Virus record (IMG/VR): IMGVR_UViG_3300030102_002108
Span: 1 to 23,471 of that record
Direction: 5' to 3' (one strand)
Origin: a virus
DNA length: 23,471 bases
This document shows positions 2 to 19,866 of this stretch, piece by piece. The position numbers and the translations under genes were made by a program. Under the pieces are notes generated by a model that made no database searches, was not told the DNA's origin, and was given only the letters and a program-made list of their open reading frames with translations. Every line of letters starts with the position of its first letter. The stretch's first letter is position 1.

Positions 2-292
2 TACCGCAGCAAGGATACTGGTGAGCTTCACATGCTCGCGGACTGGGTGTTCCTGCAGCCAATCGAAGAGGAGGAGCCAGAGGAGAGCGAGATTATTGTC
101 GTTGACCTCAAGCCCAAGACTCACCTCAAAGCAAAAGTTTTCTGCTGCCCCAAGGACATGATTACTCAAGGCGTCAAGCCGGGAGACATCGTAGGGTTTA
201 AGAAGAACAGAGACTATGAGATGCGATTGGAGGACGACACTACTGTCTTCCGTATGCGCTCAGAAGAAATGATGTATGTCGAGGAGTCCTAA
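2..292 (+). CDS. GroES/gp31-like co-chaperonin (5'-partial at window edge)
   Basis: The frame is open to the left edge, so the start may lie outside the window; the first internal ATG is at 32 but homologous residues appear before it. The alignment to GroES (Cpn10) is by eye. LHMLADWVFLQP matches the first strand (RPLHDRVIV in E. coli). EIIVVD matches the mobile loop with its I-V-L GroEL-binding tripeptide. KAKVFCC matches RGEVLAVG, VKPGDIVGF matches VKVGDIVIF, and the end (VFRMRSEEMMYVEE) matches VLIMSESDILAIVE. The stretch between mobile loop and the next strand is short, so the roof hairpin may be reduced. The family caps host GroEL to fold large substrates; T4 gp31 does this for the capsid protein. 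It stands directly upstream of the packaging and capsid genes, which suits that role. Its stop overlaps the next gene's start by 17 bp. Family fairly sure, capsid role inferred. Confidence 0.72.
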   Translation, partial: YRSKDTGELHMLADWVFLQPIEEEEPEESEIIVVDLKPKTHLKAKVFCCPKDMITQGVKPGDIVGFKKNRDYEMRLEDDTTVFRMRSEEMMYVEES

Positions 293-569
293 GTTCGAGA
301 CCATCGAAGCTTCTCGCAGGCTGATGGATAGCATGGCAGTCGCAATCAACAACATGATTGAAGAGGTTAAGCGTCCTGTAGACCCGGAGGCTGGCGGTGC
401 TGCACGCAAGGCTGAGCTGCAGTCTATCAAGCAGACCGCTACAGATTGCAAAGAGCTGTTAATCGAAAGGCAGCGGCTGGAGCAGATGGTCAAAGACCTG
501 AGCGAGAACGGCAGCATCGACGAGGATAAGGACTACTCAGGCGGCTTTGCAGAAAGATTCAGTAAGTGA
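276..569 (+). CDS. Small helical protein, candidate terminase small subunit
   Basis: A 97-residue protein, largely alpha-helical and charged. A helix-forming segment (about residues 8-31) is followed by a second, coiled-coil-like one (about 45-75, with K-E-L-L-I-E-R-Q-R-L-E-Q-M-V) and an acidic tail ending GGFAERFSK. The ATG at 276 lies inside the last codons of the co-chaperonin, and its stop overlaps the GTG start of the large terminase by 4 bp (GTGA), so the three genes are probably translationally coupled. Small terminases usually sit just before the large subunit and are short helical proteins. The call rests on that position and the composition, and on my recollection that Bacteroidota phages carry similar proteins ending in GFAE-K-like tails here. 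I see no clear helix-turn-helix. It could instead be an unrelated small assembly factor. Confidence 0.45.
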   Translation: MSRSPKFETIEASRRLMDSMAVAINNMIEEVKRPVDPEAGGAARKAELQSIKQTATDCKELLIERQRLEQMVKDLSENGSIDEDKDYSGGFAERFSK

Positions 570-2707
570 CGGGGCTGGTAGACATAGAGAAGTACGACGA
601 ACCAGTCGTATCCATTTGCCCGCGCGGCACTCTCGGGGACGTCATTGACATCTCCGGTCTACCTATCTGTTTGCCTAAGCAGCCACGAAAGAAAGACATT
701 GCAGGGTACGACCTACCCGCTCACCTACAGACTTGGGCTAGGACAGAGATGCCTAGTGAGCTTGCTCGCATCAAGTCTATGGACGAGTGGTACGAAATGC
801 CCAAGGAGTTTCGCCAAAGGTTCTCTCCCTTTATCGAGGAGGAGTTCCGCAGGCGCAGAGAAGGGTACTGGTTCTACAACAACGGAGAACCTACCTACAT
901 CACTGGGCGTCACTACATGATGCTTCAGTGGAGCAAGATAGATATTGGCTATCCTAGTTTCCTAGACTTCCAACGGAAGCTCTTCGTCCATCAGGCCGCG
1001 TGTGAGGCTGACCCCAGATGCCTTGGTCAACTGTATACCAAGTGTCGTCGCTCAGGGTACACCAACATGTCCGCCTGCGTTCTTGTAGACGAAGCCACAC
1101 AGGTCAAGGACAAACTTTTGGGTATCCAGTCGAAGACGGGTAAGGACGCGCAGGAGAACGTCTTCATGAAGAAGGTCGTTGCTATCTTCAAGTCCTACCC
1201 GTTCTTCTTTAAGCCTATCCAAGACGGTACTACCAACCCGCGTATGGAGTTGGCGTTCAGAGAACCGTCCAAAAGGATTACCAAGAACAACAAGACCTCT
1301 GTCAAAGGGGATGCCCTGAACACAATCATCAACTGGAAGAATACCACGAACAATGCCTACGATGGCGAGAAATTACATATCTTGTATCTCGATGAGGCAG
1401 GCAAGTGGGAGAAACCAACAGACATCAGAGAAGCATGGAGGATACAACGGACTTGCTTGATTGTGGGACGCCGTGTTATCGGGAAGGCGCTTGTGGGCAG
1501 CACCGTCAACCCGATGGACAAAGGTGGTCAAGAATACAAAGAGCTTTGGAAAGATTCAGACCCACAAGAACGCAACAAAAACGGAAGGACAACCTCAGGA
1601 TTGTACAAAATCTTCATTCCGGCTTACGAAGCCTTAGAGGGCTTCTTCGACAAGTACGGCAAGCCAATCATCGAGACTCCGGAGCAGGAGGTGGAGACGC
1701 TGGACGGGGAAACCGTAGAGATAGGCGCAAGGGAGTTTCTAAAAAACGAAAGGGACGCTCTAAAGCATGACGCCCGGGAGATGAACGAAATTGTTCGTCA
1801 GTTCCCCTTTACTACAGACGAGGCGTTCCGCGATAGCGTCGAGGGCTCTCTGTTCAACATCGGAAAGATTTACGAGCAGATTGACCACAACGAAAACATG
1901 TATCCAGACCCTGTGGTCCGTGGCAACTTCACATGGAAGGGAGGCGTCAGGGACACGGAGGTTGTGTTTGTTCCTACCTCAGAGGGCAGATGGTTCGTGT
2001 CTTGGATGCCGCCACTCGACCTCAGGAATCAAAAGGTAACTGAAAGGGGGAAGCTTGTAGCCCCCAACAAACTGATTGGCTGTGGTGGTGTTGACTCTTA
2101 TGACATCGACGCTACTACAGACGGGAGGGGTTCAAAGGGAGCGTGTCACATCTACAACAAGTTTAACATGCGGGCCCCCTCTAACATGTTTGTTGCAGAG
2201 TACTGCTCCCGCCCTCCTATGGCAAAAATCTTCTACGAGGATGTGCTGATGGCAGCCTACTTCTTTGGCTACCCACTCCTCGTGGAGAACAACAAGTACG
2301 GTATCGTAAGATACTTTGAGTCAAGAGGTTACGACGGCTACCTACTGGATAGACCACAGCATCTCACCACGGCGGGGTCTGTTGCAACCAAGACCAAGGG
2401 TATCCCGTCTAACTCACAGGATGTCATCCACACACATGCACAAGCGATTGAGGACTACATACACAACCACGTGGGAATCAATGAGAAGGGAGAGGTTGGC
2501 AGGATGTATTTTAACCGCACTCTCGAGGATTGGATTGGCTACAGAATTGACAACAGAACTAAGTTTGACTTGACAATTAGTGCGGGGCTTGCGTTGCTTG
2601 CTGCACAGACTGTCGTACAGAAGAAAAAAGCGGCTGACTTTACAGGCAAGAAGTTCTTCCGCAAATACACCTACACACCGGGCGGGCTCTCAAAACCCTC
2701 TAAGTGA
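566..2707 (+). CDS. Terminase large subunit (packaging ATPase and nuclease)
   Basis: This 713-residue motor cuts concatemeric DNA and pumps it through the portal into the procapsid. In order: an N-terminal region to about 150; a degenerate P-loop KCRRSGYTNMS (159-169); Walker B HILYLDEA (271-278, D276/E277); a coupling motif GSTVNP (311-316); then an RNase H-like nuclease with GGVDSYDID (D510, D513), VEN (E574) and a third acidic cluster DVIHTHAQAIEDY (D619, E629, D630). The P-loop lacks the usual G-K-[ST]; arginines at 161-162 may take over, as in several terminase families with a shifted or substituted lysine. The start is GTG at 566, four bases inside the preceding gene; the first residues MTGLVDIEKYD continue without an in-frame ATG nearby. 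Motif order and length are normal for the family, so I am confident of function. Confidence 0.93.
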   Translation: MTGLVDIEKYDEPVVSICPRGTLGDVIDISGLPICLPKQPRKKDIAGYDLPAHLQTWARTEMPSELARIKSMDEWYEMPKEFRQRFSPFIEEEFRRRREGYWFYNNGEPTYITGRHYMMLQWSKIDIGYPSFLDFQRKLFVHQAACEADPRCLGQLYTKCRRSGYTNMSACVLVDEATQVKDKLLGIQSKTGKDAQENVFMKKVVAIFKSYPFFFKPIQDGTTNPRMELAFREPSKRITKNNKTSVKGDALNTIINWKNTTNNAYDGEKLHILYLDEAGKWEKPTDIREAWRIQRTCLIVGRRVIGKALVGSTVNPMDKGGQEYKELWKDSDPQERNKNGRTTSGLYKIFIPAYEALEGFFDKYGKPIIETPEQEVETLDGETVEIGAREFLKNERDALKHDAREMNEIVRQFPFTTDEAFRDSVEGSLFNIGKIYEQIDHNENMYPDPVVRGNFTWKGGVRDTEVVFVPTSEGRWFVSWMPPLDLRNQKVTERGKLVAPNKLIGCGGVDSYDIDATTDGRGSKGACHIYNKFNMRAPSNMFVAEYCSRPPMAKIFYEDVLMAAYFFGYPLLVENNKYGIVRYFESRGYDGYLLDRPQHLTTAGSVATKTKGIPSNSQDVIHTHAQAIEDYIHNHVGINEKGEVGRMYFNRTLEDWIGYRIDNRTKFDLTISAGLALLAAQTVVQKKKAADFTGKKFFRKYTYTPGGLSKPSK

Positions 2708-2747: not shown

Positions 2748-5186
2748 ATGAAGGGTCACAAGCCAAAGTCGTATTCCCAGTTCCCAGACCCTATGGCGCC
2801 AGCGAGCGTCAAGGCAAGTGAGGACTATGGAATCGCTTATGCTAAATCTATCGAGGCACAATGGGGAGGCCTCGACGATTTTTCTCACGGGTTCGGAAAG
2901 CGACTCGTCGAGTTCAATCGAAACAGAGATTACGCTAACGGTACGCAAGATACATCAATCTACAAACAAATCCTAAACAGCATGGACACCCAAGCGGGTG
3001 ACGGAACGCTGCTTAACCTTGATTGGTCACCAGTTCCAATCGTTCCTAAGTTTGTTCGGATTGTAGTAAACAAGATTCTTTCTCGCAAGTTCCGCCCCAA
3101 CGTGGAGGCGATTGACCCCATGTCAAAGGACGAGAAGGAGAAGAAAAAGATTCTAGCCAAGTTTGCTATTGAAGAAAGAGAGGTCATTGAGGAAGCCAAG
3201 TCGCTTGGCCTCAACACAGCTGCTGTGCCAGAAGGACTCCCCGACAACAGCGAAGAGGCTGAGATTTACTTGGCTGATAGTATCAAGACTAGTGCTGAGG
3301 TGGCTGCTCAACTTGCTACTAAACTTACTCTTGATTGGAATGACTTTGATGACGTCGTATTCCGTAGAGCTGTGGAGGACCTTGTGGTCAATGGCATGGC
3401 TGTGGTTAAGAGGAGCAACGACCCGACTTACGGAATCAAGACGGAGTATGTAGACCCCGCTCAGTTCATCCACTCCAGCACGGAGGACCCCAACTTCTCT
3501 GACATCGTATACGCCGGGCATGTCAAGCGCATGTCCATCCAAGAGCTCAAGAGAGTTGCTGGGACTGACATCCCGGAGGAGGAGTACAAGAAGATTGCGA
3601 AGGCGGTGATGAATCGCACCTACAACAACGCGGCTCAGTTCAACCAAACTGTCTACGACAGAACTCGCGGCACTCACGTCTACGGCTACGACGAATACTT
3701 GGTCGACGTCTTGGACTTTGAGTTCCTCGGTGTCGATGATATGATTTACGAGGAGAAGACCTCGCAGTTCGGCAACATTGGTTTCTACTACAAGGGAGAA
3801 AGCTACAAGCTGCCCAACGACTCTGTCTACGACAGGAAGATTCACACCATGCCAAACATGTGTGTGTACGGAGGTTCCTACGTCATCGGTAGCGGCCTGT
3901 TGTTCGGGTACGGCATGAAGAGGGACATCCCCAAGAACATGCACGACCTGACTCGCGCTCGTCTTTCGTACAGCGTAGTCGCCACAAACTTCCGTCGTCA
4001 GATGCCCAAGTCTATGGTGTCATCTGTCATCGGCTTTGCTGACCAGCTCCAGCTTACCCACCTCAAGATTCAACAAGCCATCGCCAAGGCCAAGCCTGAC
4101 GGATTGATTGTAGACATCGAAGGTTTGGAGAATGTGCAGCTTGGTGCAGGAGGAGAGCTTCAACCGCTCGACATCCAAGACATCTACGAGCAGACTGGTG
4201 TCTTCTACTACAGAAGCAAGAACCCAGAGGGTGGATTCCAAAACCCACCTGTTCGTCCTCTTGACAACACCATCCGAAACATCAACGAGCTGATTGGTTT
4301 GTACAACCACTACCTCCGTATGATTCGTGACGTCACGGGTGTTAACGAGGTTCTTGATGGTAGCTCACCAAAGTCTGACGCTCTTGTCGGCGTTCGCCAG
4401 CAGCAACTCGCTGCAGGGAACAACGCTATCAACGACATCACCAACGGAGCATCTGTCTTGTACAAGAGAGTGTGCGATGACGTAGTGAAGTGCTTGCAGG
4501 TTCTGCCTCCTGACTCAATCATCTACGAGGCGTACGAAAGAGCTATTGGAACTACCAGCATGGAAGTACTTTCTTCGTTTGCTTCTCTGCCACTTCACAA
4601 CTACGGTGTGATTGTGGAACGAGAGATGTCAGACGAAGCCAAACTGTTACTCGAACAAAACATCCAGCAGTCACTTGCACAAAGAGAGATTGACCTTGAG
4701 GACGCTATGGCAATCCGCCGTCTCAAAGATTTGGACCAAGCGGAAAGACTCCTCATCATCAGGCGCAAGCGTAGAATCGCCGCGTTGCAGCAGCAACAGC
4801 AGCAACAAATGCAGATGCAAGCGCAGGTGAACATGCAGTCTCAGCAGGCCGCTGCTCAGCTCCGCATGCAAGAAGTCCAGATGAAGGGGCAGATTGACAT
4901 GCAGAAGATTCAGGCTCAGGGTCAAGTCGAGCTTCAGATTCTTCAGGCCCGTCAGCAAATGGAGGGTCAGGTCCAGATGGCTAAGATGCAGATGAATGCA
5001 CAAACTCAGGCAGCTGACAAGCAGTTCCGCATGGAGCTTGAGAAGAGCAAGGATGACAGAAAGGACTCTCGCGTTGACAAGCAGGCTGTGGCTCAGTCCA
5101 AGCTTATCTCTCAGCGCAAGGGCACGCGCCCTGAGCTTGAAGACCAAGACAGCAGAGACATCATCCAAGAACTGATGAGACGATGA
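2748..5186 (+). CDS. Portal protein with long C-terminal hendecad helix
   Basis: An 812-residue protein directly after the large terminase. The portal is the dodecameric ring at one capsid vertex that binds terminase and through which DNA enters and leaves. The body is rich in helices with a stem/wing-like middle: VEDLVVNGMAVVKRS (207-221), YVDPAQFIHSS, and RDVTGVNEVLDGSSPKSDALVGVRQQQLAAG (527-557), the last typical of large podovirus portals. The C-terminus is unusual: seven glutamines (681-687), then seven 11-residue repeats (690-766) with Q at position 4 and a hydrophobic residue at position 5 of every unit. I infer a helical barrel projecting into the capsid, as in P22 portal. Start ATG at 2748 follows an A/T-rich leader and a promoter-like element; the stop overlaps the next ATG (ATGA). 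Length is in the range I recall for crAss-like portals. Confidence 0.88.
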   Translation: MKGHKPKSYSQFPDPMAPASVKASEDYGIAYAKSIEAQWGGLDDFSHGFGKRLVEFNRNRDYANGTQDTSIYKQILNSMDTQAGDGTLLNLDWSPVPIVPKFVRIVVNKILSRKFRPNVEAIDPMSKDEKEKKKILAKFAIEEREVIEEAKSLGLNTAAVPEGLPDNSEEAEIYLADSIKTSAEVAAQLATKLTLDWNDFDDVVFRRAVEDLVVNGMAVVKRSNDPTYGIKTEYVDPAQFIHSSTEDPNFSDIVYAGHVKRMSIQELKRVAGTDIPEEEYKKIAKAVMNRTYNNAAQFNQTVYDRTRGTHVYGYDEYLVDVLDFEFLGVDDMIYEEKTSQFGNIGFYYKGESYKLPNDSVYDRKIHTMPNMCVYGGSYVIGSGLLFGYGMKRDIPKNMHDLTRARLSYSVVATNFRRQMPKSMVSSVIGFADQLQLTHLKIQQAIAKAKPDGLIVDIEGLENVQLGAGGELQPLDIQDIYEQTGVFYYRSKNPEGGFQNPPVRPLDNTIRNINELIGLYNHYLRMIRDVTGVNEVLDGSSPKSDALVGVRQQQLAAGNNAINDITNGASVLYKRVCDDVVKCLQVLPPDSIIYEAYERAIGTTSMEVLSSFASLPLHNYGVIVEREMSDEAKLLLEQNIQQSLAQREIDLEDAMAIRRLKDLDQAERLLIIRRKRRIAALQQQQQQQMQMQAQVNMQSQQAAAQLRMQEVQMKGQIDMQKIQAQGQVELQILQARQQMEGQVQMAKMQMNAQTQAADKQFRMELEKSKDDRKDSRVDKQAVAQSKLISQRKGTRPELEDQDSRDIIQELMRR
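4815..5045 (+). repeat. Seven degenerate 33-bp units encoding hendecad repeats in the portal
   Basis: Residues 690-766 of the portal divide into seven consecutive 11-residue units: MQAQVNMQSQQ, AAAQLRMQEVQ, MKGQIDMQKIQ, AQGQVELQILQ, ARQQMEGQVQM, AKMQMNAQTQA, ADKQFRMELEK. Position 4 is Q in all seven, position 5 is V/L/I/M/F in all seven, position 8 is Q in six and E in one, and position 1 is A or M. The DNA units are diverged, so the period is held at the protein level. Confidence 0.85.
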
Positions 5187-5488
5187 GCAAGGAGGCAATG
5201 AGAGCGCGAATCAAGCGCATGCTCAAGAAGCACGGACTCAGCGGTGTAAACAAACCCAAGAAGACTCCAAGTCACCCGAAGAAATCCCACATGGTATTGG
5301 CCAAGGAGGGAGACAAGATTAAGCTTATCCGCTTCGGAGAACAGGGCGCTAAGACTGCTGGTAAACCAAAAGCAGGAGAGTCTGACAAGATGAAGAAGAA
5401 GCGAGCGAGCTTCAAGTCAAGACACTCAAGAAACATCAAGAAGGGCAAGATGAGTGCCGCCTACTGGGCCAACAAAGTCAAGTGGTAA
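5183..5488 (+). CDS. Small very basic conserved phage protein
   Basis: A 101-residue lysine/arginine-rich protein, coupled to the portal through a 4-bp ATGA overlap. The N-terminal third is basic (ARIKRMLKKHGLSG, KPKKTPSHPKKS). The rest forms a compact motif: KLIRFGEQGAKTAGKP, then KKKRASFKSRHSRNIKKGK and MSAAYWANKVKW at the C-terminus. From memory, the RFG-QG ... ARH-NI-KGK-S-AYWA-KVKW pattern recurs in short proteins of marine phages and some algal viruses, with no assigned function that I can state. The charge suggests nucleic acid binding, and the position between portal and head genes suggests a virion or packaging part. No transmembrane segment or signal peptide is present. Its start has no Shine-Dalgarno sequence. 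Confidence 0.75.
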   Translation: MSKEAMRARIKRMLKKHGLSGVNKPKKTPSHPKKSHMVLAKEGDKIKLIRFGEQGAKTAGKPKAGESDKMKKKRASFKSRHSRNIKKGKMSAAYWANKVKW

Positions 5489-12007: not shown

Positions 12008-12805
12008 ATGGCACACAACCTAGTAGGACTATCCGACATCATCAACGACTTCATCATCTCTTTGGAGGGTGATGACTACGCTATCAATGTCACTCGCCCC
12101 ATGCTCCGCTCAGTAGCGCTGCGCGGCTTGCGTGAGTTCGGCTTTGACCTTTCGGGCAAGGTGCGCTCTTTGAAGCTGTCCCCTGAATCCAACGGAACCT
12201 ATCAGTTGCCCGATGACTTTGCAAGCATCGCTCGGGTCGGCTTGGCTGGCTCAGACGGGATGGTGTACCCACTTGCGCACAACACAAACCTCAACATGTC
12301 GCAGGCCTACACGAACGTAACCGACCCTGTGGACAGTGATGGTGATGGTTTTTTTGATAGGGTAGACGATACAACGGGAAGCGGTGGAGGTATCCTCGGT
12401 GAAGAGGAGGCGCTCATCTTTAACAACTACGCCTACAACCAAGCCACGGGTAGAACCTACGGCATGGGTGGTGGCATCTACGCAGGCGAGTACAGGCTCA
12501 ACAGAGACCAAAACAGAATCGAGACTGACTCTGGAACTACTGGTGTGATTGTTGTAGAGTACGTGGCAGACGAAGCTCGGGCCAAGAACCCGCAGGTTCC
12601 TGTCGAAGCCGAAGAAGCTCTGCGCTCTTACATGTACTACAAAATCATCGAGCGCAAGAGAAGTGTACCTAACGTAGAGAAGTCTCGCGCTAGGCAGGAA
12701 TACTACAACGAAAGACGCAAGGCCAACGCCCGCCTCAAGACATTCAACAAGGATGAGGCAATGCGCGTGATTCGCAAGAACTTTAAGCAAGCGCCTAAGT
12801 ACTGA
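12008..12805 (+). CDS. Head-tail ring/connector protein (second) with a calcium-type loop
   Basis: A 265-residue protein, 3 bp after the preceding stop. The N-terminal helices MAHNLVGLSDIINDFI and TRPMLRSVALRGLREFGFDL are followed by beta strands KVRSLKLSPESNGTYQLPDDF, the arrangement of gp4/adaptor-like connectors in podoviruses. A polar insertion at 100-160 carries DSDGDGFFDRVDD (109-121), which matches the D-x-D-G-D-G-x-x-D calcium loop of thrombospondin type 3 repeats. The C-terminus is a long basic helix (EEALRSYMYYKIIERKRSV ... RARQEYYNERRKANARLK) and KNFKQAPKY. Likely a ring under the portal that receives the muzzle protein. Its TGA overlaps the next ATG in TGATG, so the next gene is probably coupled. 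A run of seven T lies in the loop codons but the frame is intact. Confidence 0.75.
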   Translation: MAHNLVGLSDIINDFIISLEGDDYAINVTRPMLRSVALRGLREFGFDLSGKVRSLKLSPESNGTYQLPDDFASIARVGLAGSDGMVYPLAHNTNLNMSQAYTNVTDPVDSDGDGFFDRVDDTTGSGGGILGEEEALIFNNYAYNQATGRTYGMGGGIYAGEYRLNRDQNRIETDSGTTGVIVVEYVADEARAKNPQVPVEAEEALRSYMYYKIIERKRSVPNVEKSRARQEYYNERRKANARLKTFNKDEAMRVIRKNFKQAPKY

Positions 12806-15800
12806 TGGCTATTGACAAACTGATACCTCGGCATCTGAACTTGGATGACGACGAACGCTTGGTGCAGTCCATGCAGATGACGAATGCAGAAAATGTGTTC
12901 ATCTCTGGAGACCAAGAAAACGATGCGGGTGTTGTAAAGCAGGCTGATGGGAACAGCGAGGTCACCCCGAAAACCGTTGCCGATACAATCCCTGCGAGCG
13001 GCATCAATGTCATCATTGGCTCTGTCAACTTTGACGCAGGGGGCGTGGTGTTCTACTTCTTGTACAACACTGAAAATAACCACGGTGTGTACATGTACGA
13101 GCAAGACGAAAACAGATACGTCAAGCTCTACCAAAACAGCGCTCTTGCCTTTCAGAAGGGCATGCACATTCAGGGTGATGTTGTGAAGACTGGTAAGGGA
13201 GATACCTTGCTGTACTTTACTGACGGAGAAAACGAACCTCGAAAGCTCAACGTATCTAGGCTCTTGAGCAACAGCTACGAGGACGCTATTGACGACAATA
13301 CCCCAAGCACGGTAAGCAACTACATCACAGTCTGCAAGCGCCCACCAATGAGGCCGCCACGGTTTACCTTTGGGCAGTCTGGGGAAGCCAACTCAAACAA
13401 CAGGGTCATTGACCGCGTGTTTCAGTTTGCGACTCAGTATGTCTATGCTGACGGTGAAGTTTCTGCGATTGGTCCTTACTCGAAACTGACCTACGAGGAC
13501 AACCACTTTAACGTGGATGGGACTATGGCTGACCTCTACAACACGCCCTTTGATTCTATTGACGTCATTCAAGACAAGGTTAAGCTTAGCAATGAGAATC
13601 AGGATGGTGACGTAGTAGCGGTTAGGTTTTTGGCTAGAGCTGGGAACACAGGTTCTTTCGTGGTGTTTGATGAGGTGGATACCGCATACACCAACGGCAC
13701 TTGCAGTTCTAACTTCACCAACACGAAGGCTTATCGTTTTATTTCAGAGCAGGAAACCAACAAGCTCTTTGATGCCGTGCCCCTGAAGGCAAAAACCCTT
13801 AGCGTCGTTGAGAACAGATTGTTCTTTGGCAACTATGTCGATGGGTTCGACACCTCAGAATGGGTGCAAACCAAATCCACCAACACCAGAAGTCAATCGT
13901 TTCCTGTAACCGTAGGGATACAGGAAGCCAGCTTTGAGGCTGTAGCGAACCTGCAATCACAGGCGCAAATGAGCAGCTCCGAAGTACCTGCTTACATCGT
14001 CCTCAAAAATTCTGACTCTACTGAAAATGCAAATGAAAATCTAGACCACTTCAATCCAGATTCAGGTGGTGTTGGACTTAGCAGCAGCCCCCAAAACTCG
14101 TTAGGCTACTACCAAAGACCTGAGACCGTTATCCAAAACATGGAGTGGCTATTGACAAGCGATGGCGACGACGGGCTTGAAACTGGTGAACAAAGCGCTA
14201 GACTGGGTTTGTCAACCGCCTTCGCCATGGAGGTTGATATTGACCTCTCAGACATTCCAGCAGAGGGCATTGGCACCACTGCCGAAATGACTTTAACGTA
14301 CATCCTCACAGGTGGCAGGCCATACATGATTCCTACATACGGGGACCAAGATGGAAAGCAAGAACACAGAATTAGATACAGGCCGGGACTGGGCTCTGTA
14401 GCAGAGGGTCAGACAAGAGACTTGGACTTAAAGTTTTGGCACGGTGGAGACAGCATTGGTGACGAGATTGTTAATCAATTAAACAACGCAAACATTAGCC
14501 CCAACATCGGTAAGGTGTGTGGGGTAGGATTTATCGGCGCCAAACCTGATACTTACTGGACCAAAAGTGTTCAAGTTCAGGTAAACGTAAACACCACAGA
14601 CACAAGGCTTACCATCGCTCAAAAGGTTGTTGACCAAATTGAGGTTGACAATTTTGGGGTTGAGATTAAAGGAACTGGGTACCTCACCGCTCACGGAATC
14701 AACTATCAAAGAGTATCGGGCATCGTGTCAGACAGACCGGGTTCAAAAGCCTGCAGGTATTTTTGTGACGGCAGGAATACTGGTCAAGATTCTAAAATTA
14801 TTATCGAGCCAGCGTTTGCCATCGTACAAGACAATGGCAACAAGGTTCGCGTCACATACAAGGGTAGAAGTGGAGAATTTCATGTTGGACACATTCAGCA
14901 CGGCGGGCCTGTTGCTCAAGTTGTGGACAATGGCTTTGGGGCGATTCCTATTTTCCCACAGTATGGAGCCAATCGTCAGGAAATTATTCAAGGCAGCTCA
15001 CCGACTACACTTCAGGCTACTTGCTCCGCTGTAGACGGGAGTGTCAATAACGTCAATCAAGAAGACCTTTTCAGGTGCATGATTCTGGAGTGGATGCACA
15101 CCAAAACAGCTGCCACCATAGTGTTTGGCAATGCCGGGTCTATTCAGGGTGACGAAGGTGACAACAGACTTACTTTCCGTTCTGGGGCTAGTCATCCTCT
15201 TGGCTGCGTGTTTTACGACCACAGAAACAGAAGCTCCACGGTAAAGCTTTTGAGAGAGGCCTATGTTCCTTTCAGTGGAGACGCAGCCTCTACTGTTGGT
15301 AACGAAGTGGACCGTCTTGTTCCTTATGACATTGACGTGACATTTCCAACTTCCTACATCCCAGATTGGGCGGAAAGGTATCAGATTGTTTACGCGGGTA
15401 ACTCTCAGTACGAGTTCTCTCTCACGCACAGCATTCCTGAGGCACTTGTTGCTGACATGAGTAGGGTTGTAATTAGAGACCCTTCACTCACTGACAGTGA
15501 AGACCTCGAGGAGACTCTTGATTCTTCTACCGCTTCCGGAACAGATGCAGCGGCGGAAGCAAACTTCCCGAGCTTGGCTGCGGCTGAGTCTGCTGGCATT
15601 CTCAGTAACGCCATCTATCTTCCCTTTAGATTCTTTGAGGGCAAGACGGATTCGTACAAGTCATCCTTTGGAGTAAAACTTGATTACCAGTTTAGACCGG
15701 GAGACAAGCTTCGGATTGTTAGCTATCAAGACATTTCTCAAGGTGCTGATGGCCCTGAAGTAACCACAAACTTTCCGGAGAATCACTTCTTCGACATCAT

Positions 15801-18477
15801 CGACTACAAGTACTTTGAGCACAACTCAGATAAGAACGTGCTGTCCTTGCCTCATGCCGCCGACGGTAACTTCACCAAGGAGGGTGAGTACAGGCGCTCA
15901 GGCTGGATGTTGATTGTTAAAGAAAACAATATACACACAGGGTTCTCGGTTGCAGACATTCAAGGGACTGGTAGCAGCGACAACTGGACAAAGAACTGTG
16001 TTGTAGAAATCTTGAGGCCGAAGGTGCAGCCAGTAGACGACGAGATTGTGTACTATGAGATTGGTGAGTCATTCAATATCTCGGACGACTCTAGGGAAGA
16101 TGTATACAGCCAAGCAGCCTCGGAAGGACCCATAGCGTTTACGGGGACCAACGAAATTACAAGCAGGGTGAGGCTCTTTAGGGGCGACGCCATCCGGCCA
16201 GTTTCATTTCCTTCCAACAACAATGCGAACGCAGACTTCTTTGGGATACCCGGATTTGGCCCTGCTGGAGGTGATTTCGTATCACTAAGCTTAGCAACTC
16301 ACCAAGTACAACGACCACTAGGCATGTACGAGGATGGCAGCGGCACGTACTACAGGTACAAAGTTTCAGCAGCAGCAGGCCCCGGTACAGCGCCAGCCAA
16401 TGGCTTTGACCCGGTAAATGGTGTGACCCTTGCAGATGGAACCTTCATTGCAAGTCCCGGGACGGCTATTCAGGCAGCATTCTGTGTGTTCACAAAGGGC
16501 TCGTTCAGGGCAGTACACCTGACAGACCAAGGCGACACATACTATCGCAGGAGAGACATGAGGACGTCGGCGTTTAACTCGACGACACTTGAGTTTGACC
16601 CGAGCGACCTGACTGAAGCTACATCTGTAAACTTTAGGCTTACGAACGTCGAAGACCCGGGCTTCAATGATTACTTGGACTCTACCGTTACAAGAAACTA
16701 TCATTTCGGAAGACCTCACTTTTACAACCCAGATTTTCAGGTAAACGTAAGGGGCTCGTCGGTCACATACAGCGACCCTTACGCATCTGACGGTGAAGTG
16801 CTCAACCTTTCTAGTTTCAACCCATCACTGTTTCCGTTCAAGGATTATTCCCTCAGGTACGGTGACATCTGCAAACTAATTGACGAAGGTGCTGGGATAG
16901 CGGTGTTGCAAGAAAGAAAATGCTCCAAGACTCCTGTCAGTAGAGACTACATCAATACCGCAGAGGGGGGTATGCTTATTACCTCTACCAATGTCCTTGG
17001 CAAAGAGATATACCTACCTAGCGACTACGGCCCGGGCAAATTCAGCATGGGCATTAAGGAACATGACGGAATCATCTACTTTGTTGATGCGGAGAAGGGT
17101 GTTGTCTGTGCTCTTGCTGGCAACCAAATAAAGGTTATCAGCGATGCTAAGGCTAGCAGTTTCTTTTCCACCCAACTCAGAAGCGTACAGGCTGGAGGTT
17201 CTGCCGCAGGAGTTATTACTGGCGTACACATGGACCAGAATGAAGTTGTGTTTGCCCTTAACAGCGTGCGTCGTAGAACCATTTCTGCTGGAGGAACTAC
17301 ATTTGGAAGAGGGCTTCCGGTAGACCCCGACACTAGTACGAGCTTTGACCTAAGCGGTTTGAGAAAAGTTTACACGATTAAGGGTTCTCCGCTTGACATC
17401 ATCAACGAAACTCAAAACTGGGATGGACATGTGCTGGATTGGGATGAGGCTGGTAAGGGCGTTGTCTTTGTTGACCACCCAACTGAAATTGGTTTTGTAG
17501 AATCAGGGCTTGACACCAAAGGGACTCAAGACTTTCTTGTTACAAATCAGCGCAATGATTTCTATGGCAAGATGGTTAGGCAGGCCGGGACTGAAATGAG
17601 GGGCGTTCTTAATGAAGGTGCTGGTGGCGGTTCAAAAGACAACTCAGCATCTACACTTTCAAAAAGCTCAGCGTCCGTTGCCGACAGAACCACGATTGCT
17701 TACAACTACAAGCAAGGCGTTTGGACCAGCAAGTATAGCTACAAGCCTGAAGACATGTGCCCAATCTTTGAGGACATGGTAAGCTTTGCGTCTGGAAAGG
17801 TATTCCTCCACAGCCCTTCAGCAACGCCGCTCAACTATTACGGTGTTTCTTACAATGCTGTCATTGAGGTCATCGCAAAGAAGAATCCATCCATGGTCAA
17901 GCTCTACAAGGCGCTTAGCCTTGAGGGTAATTCAGTGTGGACCGCAGAGCTATCTAACAGAGAACAGACCTCTACAATTACCACAAACATGTGGAAGGAC
18001 CAAGACATTGACGGCAACGTACGAGCTGGCGATGGGTTCCGAGAGGGCATGTTGTACTGTGATATGCCCGGTGACACCAGCACTAGCAGCAAGCTAGACG
18101 AGATTGCTGTTGGAGTTGTGGCTACGTCGGGTGTTGACGCTGTGAACAACAGAGTGACCTTTACGTCTCGCGTAGACAACATTCCATTCAACATTGGAGA
18201 TACGCTGTTCGATGCAGCAGACGGCGCTACCACGGGCAACACAATCACGGGTGTCCACGACAGGTTCACCTTGAATGTAAGTGGAGTCAGTGGACTTGCG
18301 GATGCAGACAACCTAATCGCAAAGAACGCTTCTGACACAGGTCACGTTACAGGAGACCCACTGCGCGACTACTTCTTAAAAATCAAACTCACGAACAGCT
18401 CTACCACCAAGAACGAGTTGTACGCTGTGAACGCTATCTTTGAGCGCTCACGCCTTCATAACGACAGAGTTAACTAA
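12805..18477 (+). CDS. Giant tail muzzle / stabilisation protein (1890 aa)
   Basis: By position and motifs this is the large protein that closes the tail under the ring proteins (muzzle or stabilisation protein of crAss-like phages). It starts MAIDKLIPRHLNLDDDERLVQ. Segments I recall from the family are DTLLYFTDGENEPRKLNV (131-148), SVVENRLFFGNYVDGFD (333-349), RLTFRSGASHPLGCVFYDHRNR (788-809), GIIYFVDAEKGVVCALAGNQ (1422-1441), and NPSMVKLYKALSLEGNSVW (1694-1712) with YNYKQGVWTSKYSY just before it. It is longer than the roughly 1000-1500 residues I expect. Most of the excess seems to be an insertion between 350 and 787, more A/T-rich and with strand-rich domains. A second variable region lies around 1110-1290. 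Arginine codons are mixed (AGA, AGG, CGN), unlike the capsid gene. Short A/T-rich runs occur but no frame break. Function inferred from position and motif memory. Confidence 0.8.
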   Translation: MAIDKLIPRHLNLDDDERLVQSMQMTNAENVFISGDQENDAGVVKQADGNSEVTPKTVADTIPASGINVIIGSVNFDAGGVVFYFLYNTENNHGVYMYEQDENRYVKLYQNSALAFQKGMHIQGDVVKTGKGDTLLYFTDGENEPRKLNVSRLLSNSYEDAIDDNTPSTVSNYITVCKRPPMRPPRFTFGQSGEANSNNRVIDRVFQFATQYVYADGEVSAIGPYSKLTYEDNHFNVDGTMADLYNTPFDSIDVIQDKVKLSNENQDGDVVAVRFLARAGNTGSFVVFDEVDTAYTNGTCSSNFTNTKAYRFISEQETNKLFDAVPLKAKTLSVVENRLFFGNYVDGFDTSEWVQTKSTNTRSQSFPVTVGIQEASFEAVANLQSQAQMSSSEVPAYIVLKNSDSTENANENLDHFNPDSGGVGLSSSPQNSLGYYQRPETVIQNMEWLLTSDGDDGLETGEQSARLGLSTAFAMEVDIDLSDIPAEGIGTTAEMTLTYILTGGRPYMIPTYGDQDGKQEHRIRYRPGLGSVAEGQTRDLDLKFWHGGDSIGDEIVNQLNNANISPNIGKVCGVGFIGAKPDTYWTKSVQVQVNVNTTDTRLTIAQKVVDQIEVDNFGVEIKGTGYLTAHGINYQRVSGIVSDRPGSKACRYFCDGRNTGQDSKIIIEPAFAIVQDNGNKVRVTYKGRSGEFHVGHIQHGGPVAQVVDNGFGAIPIFPQYGANRQEIIQGSSPTTLQATCSAVDGSVNNVNQEDLFRCMILEWMHTKTAATIVFGNAGSIQGDEGDNRLTFRSGASHPLGCVFYDHRNRSSTVKLLREAYVPFSGDAASTVGNEVDRLVPYDIDVTFPTSYIPDWAERYQIVYAGNSQYEFSLTHSIPEALVADMSRVVIRDPSLTDSEDLEETLDSSTASGTDAAAEANFPSLAAAESAGILSNAIYLPFRFFEGKTDSYKSSFGVKLDYQFRPGDKLRIVSYQDISQGADGPEVTTNFPENHFFDIIDYKYFEHNSDKNVLSLPHAADGNFTKEGEYRRSGWMLIVKENNIHTGFSVADIQGTGSSDNWTKNCVVEILRPKVQPVDDEIVYYEIGESFNISDDSREDVYSQAASEGPIAFTGTNEITSRVRLFRGDAIRPVSFPSNNNANADFFGIPGFGPAGGDFVSLSLATHQVQRPLGMYEDGSGTYYRYKVSAAAGPGTAPANGFDPVNGVTLADGTFIASPGTAIQAAFCVFTKGSFRAVHLTDQGDTYYRRRDMRTSAFNSTTLEFDPSDLTEATSVNFRLTNVEDPGFNDYLDSTVTRNYHFGRPHFYNPDFQVNVRGSSVTYSDPYASDGEVLNLSSFNPSLFPFKDYSLRYGDICKLIDEGAGIAVLQERKCSKTPVSRDYINTAEGGMLITSTNVLGKEIYLPSDYGPGKFSMGIKEHDGIIYFVDAEKGVVCALAGNQIKVISDAKASSFFSTQLRSVQAGGSAAGVITGVHMDQNEVVFALNSVRRRTISAGGTTFGRGLPVDPDTSTSFDLSGLRKVYTIKGSPLDIINETQNWDGHVLDWDEAGKGVVFVDHPTEIGFVESGLDTKGTQDFLVTNQRNDFYGKMVRQAGTEMRGVLNEGAGGGSKDNSASTLSKSSASVADRTTIAYNYKQGVWTSKYSYKPEDMCPIFEDMVSFASGKVFLHSPSATPLNYYGVSYNAVIEVIAKKNPSMVKLYKALSLEGNSVWTAELSNREQTSTITTNMWKDQDIDGNVRAGDGFREGMLYCDMPGDTSTSSKLDEIAVGVVATSGVDAVNNRVTFTSRVDNIPFNIGDTLFDAADGATTGNTITGVHDRFTLNVSGVSGLADADNLIAKNASDTGHVTGDPLRDYFLKIKLTNSSTTKNELYAVNAIFERSRLHNDRVN

Positions 18478-18486: not shown

Positions 18487-19866
18487 ATGGCCAACTTTAA
18501 GTACAACGACCCGCTTCTGGACGCAGCCCGTAGCTTTGCGGAAAGGGGCTATGGACGTAGCGACATGGCGCCTCGAATTTCTGGGGCTTACGGACACAAT
18601 ATGAACCCGTCGGGTGGCCAAATGCCCTACGCCCCTACACAGATGGCTTTTCTTGATGTGAATGCCGGATACGAATTGCCCCAACCTTTCGACCCTCAGA
18701 TGCAATTCTTTGGTCAATACGAAGGCGGTAGATTCTTAGGCGCTACGAGGGGCGGAGAGCCGCTTCAGTTTGGCTACGATACCCTTGGGGCTCCAGACCC
18801 AAATGCACAAGGAATCACGCCGTCAGCAGGGTTTCAACCCATCGACTTTAACCAAGACGGGGTTACTTCTATACAGGACCCTTTTATTGGACCTACTATG
18901 CCGCCCGAGTATAGAACGCAAAGCGAGATTGGCTCAGCAGTTACAGAGGCTCCACCCGAGCTTAGAGTGGGAACTGCAGCCGCCACAGGCACAGCAGCTA
19001 CAGGGACAGCAGCAGCAGGCGCGGGCACTGGAAGCGAAGCCGATTTAATTAAAGCTGGAGCGGAGTCTCGAGGTATGAAGGCGGCAGGCGCGGCTACTGG
19101 AGTTGGTCAGATTGTAGGCGGTATCACCAACATCGTCATGGGGGCAAGAGCTCTCAGAGATGTAGACATCGCAGGCGCAGAGGGTGCCGTCAGGGATGCT
19201 TACGCCACTAGACCCGGACTCGGCACTCCATCTGAGTTTTATCAGATGCAAAAGGAGGCGTATGACCAAAGACTTGTAGCGATGCGGTTAGAGGACATCA
19301 ACCGTGGCATTGCAACAAACGTAGCAGCCGCACAGCAGTACGGGGCCAGAGGCCTTGGCTCTACCTTGGCAGCTACAGCTCAGGCTCAGCGTGCTCAACA
19401 GCAAGAGGTTCTGCAGCAGCAAAGATTCCAAACCAGTGCTCTTGGCGCATTGGCCTCGGCTAGAGAGCGTGAGATTCAGAGAAGAGAGCAGCGTGCTACC
19501 TTTGACATTGGCATTGCTTACGACCAGCTCAAGGCAGAGCAGGCTAGAGAGCAGTATGCTAGACAACAAATTGCTCAAGGTATTGTCGGGACAGCGGCAG
19601 GTATTGCGAGAACCGCTGTTACATTTGGTGCAGAGCAGGGGGCGAAGGTCACACCGGGAGAGTTCTCTCACGACACCAACCCCATTGACATCGTACAAGA
19701 GGGAACTAAGATTGGAGAGATGACAGGGGGCGAGTACATCTTCAACCCACAGCAAGCTGGCAAGATGGCGCGTGAGGCGAAGAAGGGCAACTCGCCATTG
19801 CACAAGTTCGTTCGCAAGACCTTGAACAAGTTCCACAAAGACGCAGAGAAGTATGAAGGCAAGTAA
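18487..19866 (+). CDS. Internal virion (ejection) protein candidate, 459 aa
   Basis: The first gene after the muzzle protein. The N-terminal 155 residues are Gly/Pro/Gln-rich and include a calcium loop DFNQDGVTSIQD (120-131), dockerin/EF-hand-like. A low-complexity A/T/G linker (158-180) follows, with the run TAAATGTAATGTAAAGAG-like in composition. Two glycine/alanine-rich hydrophobic stretches (GMKAAGAATGVGQIVGGI from 197, and QGIVGTAAGIARTAVTFG from 363) flank a long charged helix region (260-360, rich in Q, R, E, A). The C-terminus has KVTPGEFSHDTNPIDIVQEG (380-399) then IGEMTGGEYIFNPQQAGKM, a motif I know from the ends of tape-measure-like and internal virion proteins. Likely membrane-interacting and ejected with DNA, like podovirus internal core proteins. 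The stop overlaps the next gene by 14 bp. Confidence 0.68.
   Translation: MANFKYNDPLLDAARSFAERGYGRSDMAPRISGAYGHNMNPSGGQMPYAPTQMAFLDVNAGYELPQPFDPQMQFFGQYEGGRFLGATRGGEPLQFGYDTLGAPDPNAQGITPSAGFQPIDFNQDGVTSIQDPFIGPTMPPEYRTQSEIGSAVTEAPPELRVGTAAATGTAATGTAAAGAGTGSEADLIKAGAESRGMKAAGAATGVGQIVGGITNIVMGARALRDVDIAGAEGAVRDAYATRPGLGTPSEFYQMQKEAYDQRLVAMRLEDINRGIATNVAAAQQYGARGLGSTLAATAQAQRAQQQEVLQQQRFQTSALGALASAREREIQRREQRATFDIGIAYDQLKAEQAREQYARQQIAQGIVGTAAGIARTAVTFGAEQGAKVTPGEFSHDTNPIDIVQEGTKIGEMTGGEYIFNPQQAGKMAREAKKGNSPLHKFVRKTLNKFHKDAEKYEGK

What the first reader, a model, noticed from the sequence alone, without database searches (positions are those of the whole stretch)
4788..5045. Seven perfect-register hendecads plus a glutamine run in the portal C-terminus
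Residues 690-766 fall into seven 11-residue units with Q fixed at position 4, a hydrophobic at position 5 and Q/E at position 8, preceded by seven Q. Hendecads favour straight or slightly right-handed helices; in a twelve-subunit portal they would form a long tube lined with glutamine and methionine. A Q/M-rich tube inside the capsid is an interesting variation on the P22 barrel.
Basis: seen in the sequence. Interest (0 to 1): 0.62.

Follow-up and report, generated by a model that had tools for sequence, protein, structure and literature searches.

The report
Two-seam eleven-residue helix in phage portal
The tail end of this marine phage's DNA-gateway protein is a long helix whose oily residues form two opposite seams repeating every 11 residues, which looks like the sequence code for a twelve-helix tube inside the virus head, built to a different twist from the solved tubes of N4-like phages.

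Summary
ORF 2748-5186 encodes an 812-aa portal protein. Residues 690-766 are seven gap-free 11-mers with Q at position 4 and a hydrophobic at position 5 in all seven; no composition-matched shuffle reproduced this. The finding is more specific than reported. Hydrophobicity does not repeat at 3.67 residues, as in an ordinary hendecad coiled coil. It repeats at 2.18-2.20 residues (11/5), the alias of two stripes on opposite faces of a helix with about 3.69 residues per turn. The wheel has four faces: bulky hydrophobic, charged, small/Met and glutamine. All four recur in related lineages at 25-32% identity, with no gap in 690-766 across 85 sequences. A helix with two seams is what a ring of helices needs. 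The solved 12-helix barrel of phage DEV and its relatives shows the same two-seam signal at 2.33 (bifacial heptads), so this family looks like a bifacial-hendecad version. AlphaFold predicts a helical tail (662-791), and the fold matches crassvirus and P22 portals. 'Lined with methionine' is not: methionines mostly sit in the seams. The Q-run is clade-specific. A conserved tip (767-797) follows. No dodecamer could be modelled, so lumen facing and handedness are inferred.

The parts
2748..5186 (+). Portal protein, 812 aa
   Evidence: phrog_6547 portal protein E 1.5e-194; AF2 model on an 85-sequence alignment, pLDDT 72.5, pTM 0.66; Foldseek best PDB hit is the phicrAss001 portal, E 1.9e-21, then P22 portal E 9.1e-11; hhalign to crassvirus portals prob 97.6, E 3.5e-12
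4731..5120 (+). Predicted helical tail, residues 662-791, about 195 A if one straight helix
   Evidence: AF2 helices 662-720 and 727-791, pLDDT about 45-78, break at 721-726 low confidence; thin-alignment model gave 662-748 and 756-788
4788..4808 (+). Run of seven glutamines (residues 681-687), clade-specific
4815..5045 (+). Seven 11-residue units (residues 690-766), bifacial hendecads; hydrophobicity period 2.18-2.20
   Evidence: phase-coherent two-stripe signal from about 679 to 766
5046..5138 (+). Conserved barrel tip, residues 767-797; K772, R775 and S784 invariant across five lineages
   Evidence: 76.7% mean pairwise identity against 51% in the barrel; invariant columns; 9 of 24 columns at least 90% conserved in 767-790 against 2 of 77 in 690-766
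566..2707 (+). Terminase large subunit directly upstream (portal synteny)
   Evidence: phrog_6681 E 4.3e-207

Best explanation
Residues about 679-766 are the barrel helix of a dodecameric phage portal. Each helix carries two hydrophobic seams on nearly opposite faces. One is bulky (V/L/I/M; positions 1, 5, 9), the other small/Met (A/G/S/M; positions 3, 7 and partly 10). The bulky seam of one subunit packs on the small seam of the next, so twelve helices close into a tube about 115-130 A long projecting from the portal crown into the capsid. Of the two polar faces, one is a nearly uncharged glutamine ladder (positions 4, 8, 11) and the other carries charge pairs at i,i+4 (positions 2, 6). I expect the Gln face to line the lumen as a neutral low-friction surface for DNA and ejected proteins, and the charged face to look out at packed DNA and cargo; this orientation is a guess, about 60:40. 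The conserved tip (767-797) is the likely dock for ejection/cargo proteins, by analogy with P22. Shown here: portal identity, predicted helix, two-seam 11-residue code, frozen length, four-face wheel in five lineages. Inferred: oligomeric state, tube, facing, handedness (straight to slightly right-handed), tip function.
For: Portal identity. Predicted helical tail; no proline in 676-766 in the window clade. Two-stripe power at period 2.2 is 19.3 with 0 of 20,000 shuffles as high, while 3.667, 3.5 and 3.6 are null. The signal is phase-coherent only from about 679 to 766. Same period in MW202828, elemo and phi19:3 relatives at about 27-32% identity. Same four-face wheel in five lineages with no gaps. 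Anchor spacing is 146 residues in MW202828, Calle_2 and elemoD and, by reading the sequence, also in the window (E636 to A782). Positive control: DEV gp80, whose barrel 620-721 was resolved by cryo-EM as a stable dodecamer (PMC10925440), gives 2.32-2.33, and every family member long enough to test gives 2.28-2.37. Background: of 65 phage proteins and 30,247 windows, this portal ranks first and the DEV portal second. Charge pairs at positions 2/6 are rarely like-signed in the window clade and swap sign in phi19:3. crAss001 portal has a long C-terminal barrel (PMC10172136). P22: distal barrel and ejection proteins (PMC4992974).
Against: No dodecamer was modelled or measured. AF2 confidence in the tract is low (pLDDT 45-60 in 700-760) and the two models place the helix break differently. 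Gundel_1 shows no signal and Calle_2 only a weak one (P 0.085), although they are relatives. crAss001, the closest solved relative, shows only a weak signal (2.22, P 0.04), in a region distal to the aligned tract. The angle between the two seams (176 +/- 5 degrees) does not reproduce the 150 degrees ideal for 12 helices and does not say which face is inside. A non-portal ejection protein (N4 gp54) also scores 11.8, so the signature is not exclusive to portals.
Confidence: 0.74

Rival explanations
1. The tail is a Q-rich, largely disordered tether in the procapsid and in solution that orders into a barrel only when packed DNA presses on it, as in P22, and its main role is to hold ejection proteins.
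For: P22's barrel is unfolded without DNA and in the procapsid (PMC5290284; PMC12005531) and its distal part is proposed to be disordered and to bind ejection proteins (PMC4992974). AF2 confidence is low in 700-760. The tip 767-797 is the most conserved part of the tail.
Against: The frozen length, coherent two-seam phase and four-face wheel imply that a defined helical packing is under selection. P22's own two-stripe signal is weak, whereas DEV, whose barrel is stable without DNA, has a strong one.
Confidence: 0.17
2. The period of 2.2 marks a beta-strand-like alternation (Q-x-Q-x), i.e. a beta or amyloid-like Q-rich segment.
For: 2.2 lies in the range of beta-strand periodicities, and the sequence alternates polar and apolar residues locally.
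Against: Power at exactly 2.0 is nil (0.83). Phase stays coherent over about 88 residues, far longer than a strand. Predicted all-helical. A solved helical barrel gives the analogous alias at 7/3.
Confidence: 0.03
3. Low-complexity drift: glutamine-rich sequence spread by slippage of CAG/CAA codons, with no structural meaning.
For: The seven-Q run is limited to part of one clade and varies from 1 to 7 Q.
Against: No DNA tandem array in the tract; units only 46% identical at DNA level; no indel in 690-766 over 85 sequences, while slippage would make indels. Another Q-rich ORF in the window (18487-19866) is not among the top 22 two-stripe scores.
Confidence: 0.04
4. Ordinary hendecad coiled coil: a dimer, trimer or tetramer with a single hydrophobic stripe, not a large ring.
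For: 11-residue repeat with hydrophobic and Gln positions.
Against: Single-stripe power at 3.667 is 0.91 (P 0.41); the two seams lie 176 +/- 5 degrees apart, as needed for two neighbours per helix rather than one core.
Confidence: 0.02

Closest known systems
phicrAss001 portal gp20 (PDB 7QOG/7QOI)
   Same: Best fold match (E 1.9e-21), detectable profile homology (E 3.5e-12), and a long C-terminal barrel reported by cryo-EM (PMC10172136).
   Different: Barrel sequences do not align beyond about residue 713; crAss001 has only a weak two-stripe signal, at 2.22, in a different stretch.
P22 gp1 portal barrel (residues 603-725; PDB 3LJ5)
   Same: C-terminal helical barrel projecting into the head, Gln-rich; portal core fold shared (P22 entries among the PDB hits).
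   Different: No profile homology detected. Weak two-stripe signal at 2.28-2.32, about 3.55 residues per turn; published as unfolded without DNA.
DEV gp80 / N4 gp59 (Schitoviridae) portal barrel
   Same: Solved 12-helix barrel (DEV 620-721), also with two hydrophobic seams per helix by the same test.
   Different: Seams repeat at 2.33 = 7/3, i.e. bifacial heptads (3.50 residues per turn); here 11/5, bifacial hendecads (3.69).
Portals of Flavobacterium elemovirus, Cellulophaga phi19:3 / Calle_2 and Caudoviricetes MW202828
   Same: Homologues at about 25-32% identity; same four-face wheel and no gaps in the tract; 2.18-2.20 period in elemo, MW202828 and phi19:3.
   Different: Less Gln (15-20% against 26%), no Q7 run, charge-pair sign swapped in phi19:3.

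Membership tests
Phage portal protein | Sequence family assignment and portal fold | tested here: met
   phrog_6547 E 1.5e-194; Foldseek to portals from 1.9e-21
Phage portal protein | Encoded next to the large terminase | tested here: met
   TerL at 566-2707 directly upstream
Phage portal protein | Dodecameric ring | not testable with these tools
   No multimer prediction available
Portal with C-terminal helical barrel (P22/crassvirus/DEV type) | Long C-terminal helix after the crown | tested here: met
   Predicted helices 662-720 and 727-791 at moderate to low confidence
Portal with C-terminal helical barrel (P22/crassvirus/DEV type) | Two inter-subunit faces per helix | tested here: met
   Two-stripe period 2.2, P < 1/20,000; faces 176 +/- 5 degrees apart; same class of signal in the solved DEV barrel
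Portal with C-terminal helical barrel (P22/crassvirus/DEV type) | Tube observed in the virion | not testable with these tools
   Needs cryo-EM
Crassvirus-type portal | Profile homology to Crassvirales portals | tested here: met
   hhalign prob 97.6, E 3.5e-12, 600 columns
P22 gp1 family | Sequence-profile homology to P22 gp1 | tested here: not met
   hhalign best prob 0.8%, 23 columns; only the fold is shared
Canonical hendecad coiled coil | 11-residue repeat | tested here: met
Canonical hendecad coiled coil | Single hydrophobic stripe at 3.667 residues | tested here: not met
   power 0.91, P 0.41
Schitoviridae-type bifacial-heptad barrel | Seam period 7/3 (3.50 residues per turn) | tested here: not met
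   power 0.01 at 2.333 in the window tract; peak at 2.18-2.20

The most novel reading that the evidence does not exclude
Portal barrels fall into at least two superhelical classes that can be read from sequence: bifacial heptads (DEV/N4) and bifacial hendecads (this marine Bacteroidota-phage group, related to crassvirus portals). The hendecad class would form a straighter or right-handed tube with a neutral glutamine ladder on one wall, tuned as a fixed-length, stably folded conduit, with a conserved docking tip for ejection proteins. The two-seam spectrum would be a sequence test for barrel-bearing portals.
Probability: 0.5. Interest if true: 0.6.

Novelty: new variant of a known kind. Interest (0 to 1): 0.46.

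Why it matters
Portal barrels are hard to resolve (P22's is disordered outside packed heads), and what makes some fold stably, as in DEV, while others do not is open. Here a simple spectral test sees two seams per helix, gives the seam pitch, and separates a hendecad class from the solved heptad class. That yields checkable predictions of tube handedness, length and stability from sequence alone, and points to a conserved tip that may hold ejection proteins in a large, poorly studied group of marine phages.

Tried and rejected
Looked for the canonical single-stripe 3.5, 3.6 and 3.667 periods: absent. Looked for a DNA-level tandem array: none in the tract, units only 46% identical. Pfam: no hit for the portal. 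PDB by sequence: only a keratin coiled coil at E 9.7, and nothing with the profile. First AF2 on 36 close sequences was poor (pLDDT 51.5), so I rebuilt it with five lineages. P22 as homologue: no profile match. Tried to infer which face is inside from the seam angle: 176 +/- 5 degrees via the charged face, not decisive. Gundel_1 and SU10 portals show no clear two-stripe signal, so the test is not universal. Literature searches listed no paper describing hendecads in a portal barrel; the key P22 barrel paper (Tang 2011) is not held.

Full report
WHAT IS THERE. ORF 2748-5186 (+, 812 aa) lies directly downstream of a terminase large subunit (566-2707) and is a portal protein (phrog_6547, E 1.5e-194). 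The window is the first 23,471 bases of a 53,709-base virus record. Residues 681-687 are seven Gln. Only period 11 of those from 5 to 15 gives full columns, and 0 of 20,000 shuffles of the tail hold the pattern. The units are not a DNA repeat.

THE KEY POINT. A normal hendecad coiled coil would show one hydrophobic stripe with period 11/3 = 3.667. That signal is absent (power 0.91, P 0.41). The whole signal sits at 11/5 = 2.2 (power 19.3; 0 of 20,000 shuffles; the same with binary scales). On a helix with 11 residues per 3 turns, two stripes on opposite faces have frequency 6/11, which on integer positions appears as 5/11. The tract therefore encodes a helix with two seams. The signal is phase-coherent from about residue 679 to 766 and fades on either side. 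Fitted over 64 sequences, the seams run at 3.687 +/- 0.007 residues per turn.

THE WHEEL. Ordered by angle on an 11/3 wheel, the positions form four faces: 1, 5, 9 hydrophobic (V/L/I/M/A); 2, 6 charged; 10, 3, 7 small or Met (A/G/S/M), with position 10 mixed; 11, 4, 8 glutamine (57-82% Q). The two hydrophobic faces are 176 +/- 5 degrees apart. Positions 2 and 6 are i,i+4 and form charge pairs that are rarely like-signed in the window clade; their sign is swapped in phi19:3. Methionines therefore lie mostly in the seams and do not line a lumen.

CONSERVATION. In 64 distinct relatives the stretch 676-797 has no gap, although the barrel is among the less conserved parts (51% mean pairwise identity against 72% for residues 1-675 and 77% for 767-797). 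In an 85-sequence alignment spanning five lineages, the other four at 25-32% identity to the window, there is no gap in 690-766, and the four faces recur in each lineage. The distance between an upstream and a downstream anchor is 146 residues in MW202828, Calle_2 and elemoD and also in the window by direct reading of the sequence. The seven-Q run is present in only 7 of 64. Letters drift while length and register are held.

STRUCTURE. With the deep alignment AlphaFold2 gives pLDDT 72.5, pTM 0.66, and helices 662-720 and 727-791; confidence inside the tract is low. Foldseek's best PDB hit is the phicrAss001 portal (E 1.9e-21), followed by other podophage portals including P22, Sf6, N4 and DEV. 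Profile comparison gives E 3.5e-12 to crassvirus portals and nothing to P22. The phicrAss001 portal has a long P22-like C-terminal barrel (PMC10172136).

CALIBRATION. The same test was run on portals with solved barrels. DEV gp80, whose barrel 620-721 is a stable dodecamer even without DNA (PMC10925440), gives a two-stripe signal at 2.32-2.33 = 7/3. Family members with usable tails give 2.28-2.37, and the family mean peaks at 16.9 at 2.33. P22 (2.29), N4 (2.35) and Sf6 (2.34) are weaker (P 0.04-0.135), crAss001 weak at 2.22 (P 0.04), SU10 and Gundel_1 not significant. Among 65 phage proteins and 30,247 windows, this portal ranks first and the DEV portal second. So two seams per helix go with a solved helical barrel, and the window's group differs from DEV in seam pitch: 3.69 against 3.50 residues per turn.

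MECHANISM. I propose that each subunit's bulky seam packs on the neighbour's small seam, closing a 12-helix tube of about 115-130 A (77-88 residues at 1.5 A per residue) above the crown. The uncharged Gln ladder and the charged face are the two walls. I favour Gln on the lumen as a neutral surface for DNA and ejected proteins, at about 60:40, because no test here decided it. The conserved tip beyond the tube (767-797; K772, R775, S784 invariant) is a candidate dock for ejection proteins, since P22's distal barrel appears to serve that role (PMC4992974). Handedness (straight to slightly right-handed) follows from 3.69 being larger than 3.6 and is inference.

LIMITS. No multimer model could be run. 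The tract has low AF2 confidence. The scan windows were chosen by maximum for several comparison proteins, which the shuffles allow for. One non-portal protein (N4 gp54) also scores high, so the signature indicates a bifacial helix and is not proof of a portal barrel.

VERDICT. Real and conserved, and more specific than reported: a bifacial-hendecad portal barrel, a new variant of a known kind.

Noticed in passing
window 5183-5488 (+): 101-aa ORF overlapping the portal stop; phrog_7595, and residues 30-101 match phrog_220 'minor head protein and DNA pilot', with the motif SFKSRHSRNIKKGKMSAAYWANKVKW.
   Followed up: no
window 12805-18477 (+): 1890-aa ORF with a sub-threshold match to the crassvirus muzzle C-terminal domain (PF25729, E 2.8e-5, 24.9 bits against a cut-off of 27): a crassvirus-like tail tip in a marine phage record of about 54 kb.
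   Followed up: no
window 18487-19866 (+): 459-aa ORF with a Q-rich 15-bp tandem repeat (18977-19020) and no Pfam or PHROG match; not among the top two-stripe scores.
   Followed up: partly
window 32-292 (+): GroES-like co-chaperonin upstream of the terminase; a co-chaperonin is also annotated upstream of the terminase in elemo, phi19:3 and Calle_2 phages.
   Followed up: no
L401:4199-5098 (N4 gp54): An N4 virion structural protein shows a strong two-stripe helical signal (11.8 at 2.31), so bifacial helices may also build its ring or tube.
   Followed up: no
window 5046-5138 (+), portal residues 767-797: The tip after the barrel is the most conserved part of the tail across five lineages (KxDRKDxR...QxxQSKLIxQR) and has no assigned function.
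   Followed up: partly
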